The translations under genes were made by a program, and so were the position numbers. A stretch of 64,000 nt of DNA. Source: Chlamydiota bacterium (GTDB lineage Bacteria; Chlamydiota; Chlamydiia; Chlamydiales; Parachlamydiaceae). The notes below the pieces were generated by a model, which was not told the DNA's origin, searched no databases, and saw nothing but the letters and a program-made list of their open reading frames with translations. Of the stretch, positions 59,974 through 62,578 are shown one piece after another. The stretch is taken from NCBI GenBank assembly GCA_013287915.1, contig JABDCX010000006.1, positions 1 through 64,000 on the forward strand, given 5' to 3'. Numbering within the stretch: position 1 is the stretch's first letter; the number at the start of each line of letters is the position of its first letter.

Positions 59974-60783
59974 ATGACAGTCATACAAACAATGATCGAT
60001 CGCTGGAACACGGTTGTGCCTTTTAAATCGGAACAAATTCCTGAAGTTCAAGCCTACCTGCTCTCCTTAGCTGCAAAAGTAAAAACCATAGGCTCGATTC
60101 CTCTTCACTTGGGCCATGCTCTTGCTGGTACAGTGATTCACACTGTGACCTTTGGCAACTACTACAAAGGAGTGGGACCAGATCAATGGGCCCTTGCAAA
60201 ACAAGCGATTGAAAATGCCGACTTTGTTAGCCTGGTTGTTGGATCGACTTTGGCCTTCTACTCAGCGCAAACCTATCGCTCTTTCTGGCAGACACATTCA
60301 GAAATCGATGAAGAAAACACTTTTAAAAAGTTTTCATTTCCCGTTGCGTGTTTGCTGAAATTAAGCGATAAACTACGAGTCTTTGTTCCCTATATTTCTT
60401 CAACTGATACAGCACGCCTTATCGCAAAATCGAACGAAACGTTCGATACAAATAAAAATCCCACACCTGAAGATTACAAGAAAAACCGCAGTGAAGTTGC
60501 CTCCTTGCATCGATGGCAAGCCATTGGCAATTTAGTCCAGATCATGGCCTTTTATAGACTTAAGCAACAATACGCGTTCTGTACCATTCCCTACTACCTG
60601 TTATGTGCAGAACGCGTCCGGAACTTCTTTGCAATGGTACAAAATTATCGGACAACTCATATCAAGGAAGATCATTTTCAGGCTGGAGGTATGGAAGCCA
60701 CCTTCCAAAAATATTGCGATCGGAACGGAAAGTACATCGATTTTTCGATGTGGGGCAGAGCATTTGACGAAAGGAAGAACTAA
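59974..60783 (+). CDS. Lineage-specific hypothetical protein
   Basis: 269 residues, begins MTVIQTMIDRWNTVVPF. It has two moderately hydrophobic stretches (about 40-60 and 85-100) but no signal peptide, many aromatic residues, and a helical body. The style (N-terminal amphipathic helix followed by hydrophobic stretches) is reminiscent of chlamydial effector or inclusion proteins, but nothing specific supports that. No family recognised. It is followed by the repeat-rich gap and a MITE-like element. Confidence 0.65.
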   Translation: MTVIQTMIDRWNTVVPFKSEQIPEVQAYLLSLAAKVKTIGSIPLHLGHALAGTVIHTVTFGNYYKGVGPDQWALAKQAIENADFVSLVVGSTLAFYSAQTYRSFWQTHSEIDEENTFKKFSFPVACLLKLSDKLRVFVPYISSTDTARLIAKSNETFDTNKNPTPEDYKKNRSEVASLHRWQAIGNLVQIMAFYRLKQQYAFCTIPYYLLCAERVRNFFAMVQNYRTTHIKEDHFQAGGMEATFQKYCDRNGKYIDFSMWGRAFDERKN

Positions 60784-60866
60784 TAGTCTATAGCAAGACA
60801 AACTCTCTCTAATCAAACTGAAGAAAACTCGTTAGGACCAAGCTCGTTTTAACTCAGGTGTTCTGT

Positions 60867-60883
60867 CTTTGCGTCTTTGCGTT
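60867..60883 (+). repeat. CTTTGCG-type repeat
   Basis: CTTTGCGTCTTTGCGTT, the same unit as in the 27-bp inverted repeat after acrB. Eight bases later the MITE-like element starts. Confidence 0.7.
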
Positions 60884-60891
60884 AAAACCAC

Positions 60892-61072
60892 TTCAATGAT
60901 CCTAGAAACGGCAGTTCAAGATGATAAAGTGATGCAAGATTTTGAGTCAGAACTGCCTCAGGTGGGGGGCGATCATTCCCAAGTGGTGAAGGCGCCCCCC
61001 ACAAGAGGCGGTTGTGGCTCAAAAGATTGCGTCAATTTGGCGTCTTCAACTGCCGTTTCTAGGATGATTCAA
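60892..61072. mobile_element. MITE-like long hairpin, 181 bp
   Basis: Two 79-base arms (60892-60970 and 60994-61072) are inverted copies matching at 64 of 79 positions, with a 23-base loop. The terminal part is strongest (ATCCTAGAAACGGCAGTT perfect). The direct repeat TTCAA occurs at both outer ends and may be the target duplication. It carries no transposase. It lies at the end of the AbiEii-like gene, whose stop codon is inside the right-hand TTCAA. Confidence 0.78.
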
Positions 61073-61920
61073 CAGGTTTGAATTTTTTCAATCCAGTGCT
61101 GGAAAAAATCTTTTGACCACGTCCTTCGAATGGCCTCTTGGTCGCGAACATAGTGAATCGTGTCTTCGATCGCAGAGGCAACATCGAGCCTCTCAATGCG
61201 TTCTTGAGCAATTTTCAGAAATTCTGCTTTCGTTAAGCTTTTTTCTTGTCCGCTTAATTTGGAAAAAAGCGAGAGGTTTAAAGCGGTGTTCTTTCGAATG
61301 AACCATACTAAGTCATACCAATCACGTCCTTTGACCCTCCCTTTCCAGGCGCGATAAAAGGCGGCGTGGGTTTTGCAGGCAAAAAGGCACTCTTCATTGA
61401 CACATCTAATCGAGACAGCTACTGGTTGTGAGAGAAATTTTTGCTCATACTCATATCCCAAGGCAGGCTCTGTATCAATTTCAATTTTTATGCGGATTAA
61501 CGTTTCAGGGTGAACGCCTTTAAGCAGGTCTGTGTGCACCCCAATTTTTAAAAGCTCTTGGACAGTCGGGGTTTTTAAAAACGCAGATTTCACTGCCGTT
61601 TGAGTCTTTTTGTCCTTTTCTACAAAAGAAACGTCGAAACCAAAGGAGGAAAGCTCATTCTTCAGCGCTTCACCAAATGGCTGCCAACTCCATTGTGGAT
61701 TAGGCTCCAGGAGTGTAAAGTCAAGATCCTCTGAGAAGCGGTCGAGGCCATATAAAATCCGAAGAGCAGTCCCTCCATAAAATGCTGCGTGCTCAAAAAA
61801 CTTTCCACGCCAAAGTCCTACTAGGGCAATTTCTTGAAGAATTTCGCGCAAAGCCTGTTCATGATCCTGCAAAGAGCGATTTTGGTATCTTTCAAGCATT
61901 TGCTTAATTGCACTATTCAT
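61069..61920 (-). CDS. AbiEii-type nucleotidyltransferase toxin
   Basis: 283 residues of the AbiEii/AbiGii family. The nucleotidyltransferase motif is FYGGTALRILYGLDRFSEDLDF; RIKIEIDTEP and YDLVWFI follow. The type IV toxin acts as a GTP- or NTP-transferase and blocks growth on phage infection. ATG 61920 overlaps the end of the antitoxin gene by 8 bases. It is intact, ending at a TGA within the terminal repeat of the MITE-like element. Confidence 0.9.
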   Translation of the reverse strand: MNSAIKQMLERYQNRSLQDHEQALREILQEIALVGLWRGKFFEHAAFYGGTALRILYGLDRFSEDLDFTLLEPNPQWSWQPFGEALKNELSSFGFDVSFVEKDKKTQTAVKSAFLKTPTVQELLKIGVHTDLLKGVHPETLIRIKIEIDTEPALGYEYEQKFLSQPVAVSIRCVNEECLFACKTHAAFYRAWKGRVKGRDWYDLVWFIRKNTALNLSLFSKLSGQEKSLTKAEFLKIAQERIERLDVASAIEDTIHYVRDQEAIRRTWSKDFFQHWIEKIQTC

Positions 61921-62578
61921 GTTTTTGATGACTCCTGATTTGTATGAGGTATTTAACAGCGCTGTGGGGCCTAGCTTGATAGATTTCTCGCAATAGCTCA
62001 AGATTAAGAGTCTCTATATCATCCTCTTCAATTCGCAAGTCTTCAAATAGAGTTTCACAAAAGTGCTTTTTTGAAGAAAAACGCCCCCGTCGAAGCACTA
62101 ACAAATCGGTAAGCGCTTTTTCCTTCGTGGCAACCAATGCTTGGCTGTGCTCAGAAAATTTAATGAGAGTGATTCCTATTGGATATATTTGCATCGGGAG
62201 GTGATTATAGGTAAACAGTCCAATCGGGGTGTTAAACTCTCTTGAGCGTTGAGTTGTGATGTTTGTAACAGTATTGACCGCTTCTGGGATTAAGCGGTAA
62301 TATTGACAGGCCCACTCTAAGGAAACATACGAAGGACCATAAAGCATATTAGCAAGAACCTCTTTTGAATAGGGACGCCTTGCAAAATTCTGACCAAAAA
62401 TATATATCCCTTTTTTGACGCGGATCAGAGCCTTGATTTTTAAAAGGTGGTTGATCTTGAGTCTGGGGTTTTTATAGGTCTTCAAGCAATCCATGACAAG
62501 CCCATACTCTAATTCCTCGCCAGGCGCCTTTTCGAGCAAACGTGCTATCCCAGGGTCAATCCCCAAAAACCTTTCCAT
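61913..62578 (-). CDS. AbiEi-type antitoxin
   Basis: 221 residues. The N-terminal winged-helix part (KINHLLKIKALIRVKKGIYIFGQNF) and the YGPSYVSLEWACQYYRLIPE stretch are typical of AbiEi-like antitoxins. It would repress its own promoter and neutralise the downstream toxin. A TGTTA/TAACA palindrome lies just upstream of the ATG. Confidence 0.87.
   Translation of the reverse strand: MERFLGIDPGIARLLEKAPGEELEYGLVMDCLKTYKNPRLKINHLLKIKALIRVKKGIYIFGQNFARRPYSKEVLANMLYGPSYVSLEWACQYYRLIPEAVNTVTNITTQRSREFNTPIGLFTYNHLPMQIYPIGITLIKFSEHSQALVATKEKALTDLLVLRRGRFSSKKHFCETLFEDLRIEEDDIETLNLELLREIYQARPHSAVKYLIQIRSHQKHE

What the first reader, a model, noticed from the sequence alone, without database searches (positions are those of the whole stretch)
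60892..61072. MITE-like element with 79-base arms and a possible TTCAA target duplication
Arms match at 64 of 79 positions and end in a perfect 18-bp stretch. Many of the differences are C/T, which would still pair as G-U in RNA. No transposase is inside. It could be a non-autonomous element, and as RNA a very stable hairpin that may shield the 3' end of the toxin mRNA.
Basis: partly seen in the sequence, partly recalled or inferred. Interest (0 to 1): 0.65.

Follow-up and report, generated by a model that had tools for sequence, protein, structure and literature searches.

The report
Jumping hairpin that fits inside genes
This 163-base hairpin is one copy of a mobile DNA family in environmental chlamydiae that lengthens a gene by exactly 56 codons where it lands, so it can sit inside working genes without breaking them, much like the palindromic elements known from Rickettsia.

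Summary
The hairpin is real and is a MITE: element 60901-61063, target duplication ATGAT (60896-60900, 61064-61068), not TTCAA. The window's genome (chlamydial) has 4 full copies; two relatives have about 100 and 350 terminal-repeat hits. Of 183 full copies, 155 have an exact 5-bp duplication, 154 of them WTNAW. A 1745-bp insertion sequence with the same ends, the same kind of duplication (TTGAT) and an IS1380-like transposase sits in a related genome.

Two unexpected properties. (1) 163 + 5 = 168 bp = 56 codons, and one + strand frame is open. Of 41 copies inside long reading frames, 30 lie in exactly that frame (about 19% expected), in peptide deformylase, PrmC and AroDE among others; PrmC relatives lack the insert. 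(2) The + strand hairpin is conserved as a single-strand, probably RNA, structure: 46 of 71 pairs show double compensatory changes, G-U is kept and A-C avoided, and a tandem G.A loop and apical loop are conserved. The hairpin core recurs with other terminal repeats in further chlamydiae.

It resembles Rickettsia palindromic elements, but with duplications and a candidate transposase identified. The toxin-mRNA shield idea is unsupported. Why the RNA fold is kept is unresolved.

The parts
60901..61063 (+). MITE, 163 bp, terminal repeats CCTAGAAACGGCAGTT / inverse
   Evidence: model R1 matches 60901-61063 +, E 5.8e-34
60896..60900 (.). left target-site duplication ATGAT
61064..61068 (.). right target-site duplication ATGAT
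60901..60916 (+). left terminal inverted repeat, shared with an IS1380-like element of genome G191 (one mismatch)
61048..61063 (-). right terminal inverted repeat
60902..61063 (+). open frame of 54 codons (LETAVQDDKVMQ...STAVSR); with the duplication the insertion adds 56 codons
60938..60939 (+). 5' half of the conserved tandem G.A internal loop
61025..61026 (+). 3' half of the conserved tandem G.A internal loop
60974..60992 (+). conserved apical hairpin CATTCCC-NNNN-GGTGAAGG
61069..62001 (-). AbiEii-type nucleotidyltransferase (type IV toxin-antitoxin); its stop codon abuts the right duplication. Context, not part of the element
   Evidence: PF08843, E 2.2e-26
59974..60783 (+). neighbouring 269-aa reading frame of unknown function, convergent with the AbiEii gene. 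Context
   Evidence: no Pfam match

Best explanation
A non-autonomous transposable element of chlamydiae, moved in trans by an IS1380-like DDE transposase that acts on CCTAGAAACGGCAGTT-type ends and duplicates 5 bp at WTNAW (ends and duplications shown; trans-mobilisation inferred). Its length (163) plus the duplication (5) is a multiple of three and its + strand carries one open frame, so an insertion in the right orientation and phase adds 56 codons instead of stopping translation; copies landing otherwise in genes are mostly lost by selection (frame bias shown; selection inferred). Independently, the mobile lineage keeps the + strand foldable as a roughly 70-pair imperfect hairpin with a tandem G.A loop and fixed apical loop (shown). 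I infer that the constraint acts on transcribed RNA, for example on how the transcript of an invaded gene is read or cut, or on recognition by an unknown protein; that function is not shown.
For: Copies: 4 full ones in G000; terminal repeat in 22 of 232 phylum genomes, 353 hits in G150 and 101 in G059. Duplication: exact in 155 of 183, WTNAW in 154. Transposase: L092, 1745 bp, same ends, duplication TTGAT on both sides, 542 aa with PF13701 and best NCBIfam match IS1380; IS1380 elements give 4-5 bp duplications (PMC12116815, passages). Frame: 30 of 41 in-gene copies in + phase 2, p 8e-14 after correcting for target-site phase; 15 of 16 subfamilies of 163 nt open versus 0 of 5 of 162 nt. Empty sites: PrmC relatives match residues 40-213 and 271-373 but not the insert. 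RNA: 46 of 71 pairs with double changes, 0 of 500 shuffles; G-U:A-C is 27:2 in six subfamily consensuses versus 27:29 for recent private mutations.
Against: The NCBIfam IS1380 score (141.7) is below its cut-off (180). No transposase homologue in G000 (79.5% complete) or in G059, which has about 100 end hits. No sign of selection on the encoded amino acids: synonymous share 25% versus 27% expected, and stop avoidance is weak (4 of 269 changes versus 3.5% expected, p 0.04). In G150, 13 of 26 in-gene copies at the loosest threshold are not in the open frame. The G-U cells share ancestry and five columns dominate. Intergenic copies show no significant orientation preference (26 versus 16, p 0.16). 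No expression data.
Confidence: 0.8

Rival explanations
1. The hairpin is kept by DNA processes only: long quasi-palindromes are corrected by template switching or gene conversion between arms, which yields paired changes with no RNA-level selection.
For: Such correction would give double compensatory changes; some copies have perfect arms where others have the G.A mismatch (L108, L156).
Against: It predicts no strand asymmetry, but G-U exceeds A-C 27:2 in consensuses while private mutations are 27:29. It does not keep specific mismatches or the apical loop constant while the stems change.
Confidence: 0.2
2. A DNA hairpin on one strand (single-stranded DNA during replication or transposition) is the selected form.
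For: G.T is tolerated better than A.C in DNA too (recalled); ends and hairpin are coupled in one element.
Against: IS1380-type DDE transposition is not known to use single-stranded DNA (recalled); the core recurs with other terminal repeats.
Confidence: 0.15
3. A host-recruited regulatory hairpin that stabilises or shields the AbiEii toxin mRNA.
For: The element abuts the toxin stop codon.
Against: The foldable strand is antisense to the toxin; the other three full copies of G000 lie elsewhere, one in frame in peptide deformylase; the folds differ by strand, -111.5 (+) versus -88.8 kcal/mol (-).
Confidence: 0.03
4. The insert is removed from mRNA or skipped by the ribosome (splicing or bypassing), so that the protein lacks the 56 residues.
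For: Insertions in enzymes expected to matter to the cell, such as PrmC, peptide deformylase and AroDE, and a very stable hairpin.
Against: Removal would not need length 3n, an open frame or the right phase, yet in-gene copies are strongly biased to exactly those.
Confidence: 0.05

Closest known systems
Rickettsia palindromic elements (RPE), with the Wolbachia equivalent
   Same: Hairpin of 105-146 bp (review PMC2229807) in obligate intracellular bacteria, with an open frame, found in frame inside conserved protein genes and also between genes (passages of PMC2229807 and PMC10969869).
   Different: For RPE the review's table gives target duplication '?'. Here terminal repeats, a 5-bp WTNAW duplication and an IS1380-like candidate transposase are identified; the phylum differs; no sequence relationship was tested.
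IS1380 family insertion sequences (ISEcp1/ISEc9)
   Same: Ends of the form CCTAGATTC (ISEc9 IRL read as its complement, PMC12116815 passage; the variant CCTAGATTCGGCAGTT occurs in G023 and G036), 5-bp duplications, DDE transposase.
   Different: The window element has no transposase; the chlamydial transposase scores below the family cut-off; target WTNAW.
Neisseria NEMIS/Correia elements
   Same: MITE of about 107-155 bp; transcripts form long stem-loops; [quoted passage not shown]
   Different: RNase III processing is proposed for NEMIS; nothing of the sort is tested here. Different ends.
ERIC/RU elements of enterobacteria; RUP of pneumococcus
   Same: Small mobile hairpin elements, some (ERIC) with open frames and intragenic copies; RUP shares ends with a resident IS, as here.
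   Different: Ends mostly of the TA type, other or unknown transposases; RUP has stops in all frames.

Membership tests
MITE (bacterial, IS-derived) | short, no transposase, terminal inverted repeats | tested here: met
MITE (bacterial, IS-derived) | multiple dispersed copies with target-site duplication | tested here: met
   183 distinct copies, 155 exact 5-bp duplications
MITE (bacterial, IS-derived) | autonomous element with the same ends | tested here: met
   L092 in G191, TTGAT on both sides; no transposase homologue found in the window's own genome
IS1380-derived | transposase passes the NCBIfam IS1380 cut-off | tested here: not met
   141.7 bits, cut-off 180; E 2.4e-41, best of five families. 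Filed as IS1380-like only
IS1380-derived | 4-5 bp duplication | tested here: met
   5 bp; family rule from PMC12116815
Rickettsia palindromic elements | palindromic element with an open frame, in frame inside unrelated genes | tested here: met
   30 of 41 in-gene copies in the open frame; genes
Rickettsia palindromic elements | sequence relationship to an RPE family | not tested
   no RPE sequence was compared; works like an RPE, not filed as one
NEMIS | RNase III cleavage of the transcript hairpin | not testable with these tools
   none
Rfam RNA families | match at gathering score | tested here: not met
   only one tRNA in the window

The most novel reading that the evidence does not exclude
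A mobile structured RNA: one hairpin core (tandem G.A module GCAAGAU-UUUGA / UCAAAAGAUUGC, about 130 nt) has been passed between at least three different sets of transposon ends across Chlamydiota, so that selection keeps an RNA (or single-strand) function separate from transposition, and in one branch the same molecule also became a coding-compatible gene insert.
Probability: 0.4. Interest if true: 0.85.

Novelty: new variant of a known kind. Interest (0 to 1): 0.7.

Why it matters
In-frame palindromic elements have been known in Rickettsia since 2000, and the review read here assigns them neither a target duplication nor a transposase. This family ties the same behaviour to defined ends, a defined duplication and a candidate transposase, which makes the mechanism testable, and it supplies many natural 56-residue insertions in conserved enzymes. 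It also separates two constraints on one short sequence: reading frame in the host gene and a conserved single-strand fold.

Tried and rejected
TTCAA as target duplication: rejected, since the copies obey the ATGAT-type rule at the element edge. Coding selection as the cause of the G-U asymmetry: rejected, because non-coding 162-nt families show it too (G033: 5-9 G-U on + versus 0-2 on the other strand over its 12 copies) and synonymous changes are not enriched. Strand-biased mutation as its cause: rejected by the private mutations (27 G-U, 29 A-C; G>A 38, C>T 22). Empty site at the window locus itself: searched only with the left flank (window 60400-60892) in 38 family genomes; no match outside G000 longer than about 30 bases, so it cannot be shown. 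Orientation bias of intergenic copies: none significant. Papers: searches listed none that described this element; I judged this from titles and abstract starts, and read passages of four papers.

Full report
OBSERVATION. The inverted repeat is as described: 64 of 79 arm positions match and the + strand folds far better than any of 200 shuffles. The element itself is 60901-61063.

COPIES. The window's genome (G000, 1.82 Mb, 55 contigs, 79.5% complete) has four full copies, the other three 91-97% identical to the window copy, plus arm fragments and tiny palindromes made of little more than the two terminal repeats (two of 22 bp keep a WTNAW duplication). In the phylum, 22 of 232 genomes have the terminal repeat with at most one mismatch; G150 has 353 hits and G059 101. 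I collected 113 and then 183 distinct full copies; 96 of 113 and 155 of 183 have identical 5-bp flanks, and 154 of the 155 fit WTNAW. Among repeat pairs with such duplications the length peaks sharply at 163 (100 cases; 162: 19; 164: 7; some longer ones are composites of two copies).

TRANSPOSASE. In G191 two inverted CCTAAAAACGGCAGTT ends span 1745 bp, flanked by TTGAT on both sides, around a 542-aa reading frame with Pfam DDE_Tnp_1_4 and best NCBIfam match IS1380, below that family's cut-off. Relatives occur in 6 of 232 genomes, including G150 and G153, which carry many MITEs; none was found in G000 or G059. By eye only the terminal repeat, not the arms, is shared with the MITE. IS1380 elements such as ISEc9 have the same kind of end and 5-bp duplications (PMC12116815 and PMC2887853, passages).

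CODING COMPATIBILITY. 163 + 5 = 168 = 3 x 56. With the left duplication included, one + strand frame is open in 76 of 78 copies of 163 nt but in 1 of 28 copies of 162 nt and 0 of 6 of 164 nt (one copy of 172 nt is open). By subfamily: 15 of 16 versus 0 of 5. From the flanks alone I asked whether a copy lies in a long reading frame (at least 40 codons open on each side, 200 in all): 41 of 183 do, and 30 of these are in + orientation and phase 2, the element's open frame (29 of length 3n). One sixth is expected at random, 19% after allowing for the phases in which such targets occur in 367 long reading frames (p 8e-14). The bias is strong in G059 (15 of 16, the sixteenth being in phase but 164 nt long) and moderate in G150 (11 of 22). 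Host genes named by Pfam include peptide deformylase (in G000 itself), PrmC, AroDE with two copies, an RND transporter, an aldehyde dehydrogenase, an Hsp70-like protein, BioY and an Omp85 protein; by eye also a TilS-like protein, for which Pfam gave no match. For PrmC, 29 of 31 genomes searched had some match (G152 only to the insert), and relatives align to residues 40-213 and 271-373 in two pieces with the insert missing; 23 of 26 fetched loci gave a full reading frame, none with the insert. An AlphaFold2 model of 350 of the 374 residues keeps the PrmC core at block means of 86-98 from residue 41 on, while the insert falls to 38-75, as expected of a tolerated surface appendage. The amino acids themselves are not conserved by selection: synonymous share 25% versus 27% expected, p 0.49.

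STRUCTURE. In 24 divergent copies, 46 of 71 pairs have changes on both sides that keep the pair; 0 of 500 shuffles reach this and none of the slid controls comes near. Most of the recurrent non-canonical positions are those that an RNA would tolerate on the + strand: G-U pairs, a tandem G.A loop (the GA/GA form is the commonest), single G.A mismatches, and a constant apical hairpin; a conserved C.C mismatch is an exception. In six multicopy subfamily consensuses G-U:A-C is 27:2, while mutations private to one copy, which should be neutral, give 27:29 (Fisher 3e-5). Caution: these cells share ancestry and five columns dominate. The asymmetry also holds in the non-coding 162-nt families, so it is not a by-product of coding.

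WIDER FAMILY. A covariance model of the whole element matches 21 of 232 genomes; one of the core without the ends matches 41 of 232. Any long hairpin scores somewhat on such models, so weak hits are not claimed. But elements with different ends, CTCGACTTTGTACAT (G032, G225, G181, G210) and CCCGAGTTTACAAGTT (G062, G036; a variant in G164), carry the same core at the same place. Seven such elements, one of them (G015) with yet other ends, match the type-A core consensus at 46-65 of 98 paired positions against about 25 in pair-preserving shuffles (0 of 5000 in six, 1 of 5000 in one; the alignment was optimised beforehand, which favours this). Two rows of uncertain type (L426, L428) were left out of that test. 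Read by eye, most of the first kind have 5-bp and most of the second kind 4-bp duplications; one is CTCAG, not WTNAW. Most of these have stops in the corresponding frame. This is the most novel part and the least secure.

VERDICT. A MITE by every test made; IS1380-like by ends, duplication and relative; RPE-like in behaviour, not shown to be RPE by descent. What the conserved fold does is open. Nothing supports a specific role for the AbiEii toxin next door.

Noticed in passing
window 60859-60890: Just left of the element lies a short separate repeat (around TTTGCGTCTTTGCGTTAAA): 22-29-base matches in several chlamydial genomes, 13 in G153 and 2 more in G000.
   Followed up: no
window 61913-62578 (-): 221-aa frame overlapping the start of the AbiEii gene, placed like an AbiEi antitoxin (recalled arrangement), but without any Pfam match.
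   Followed up: no
L023 1501-1522, L036 1501-1522, L029 1501-1528: 22-28-bp palindromes in G000 that consist of two terminal repeats overlapping each other; the two of 22 bp keep a WTNAW duplication: extreme deletion forms or excision remnants.
   Followed up: partly
L012 (G000:C3:57708-57754) and L013 (G000:C1:61482-61526): Solo left arms of 45-47 bases; the first lies in a sequence that looks like a MORN-repeat gene by eye.
   Followed up: no
L097 2034-3815 and L183: Two in-frame copies in one gene: AroDE in G150, and a long frame of at least 867 codons in G059.
   Followed up: partly
L058: A 164-nt copy inside a frame open for about 500 codons on each side in G059: out of frame by length, so a broken gene or an unusual reading.
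   Followed up: no
L456-L461: Weaker core-model hits with quite different ends and long hairpins in other chlamydial genomes; possibly further, perhaps unrelated, MITE families.
   Followed up: partly
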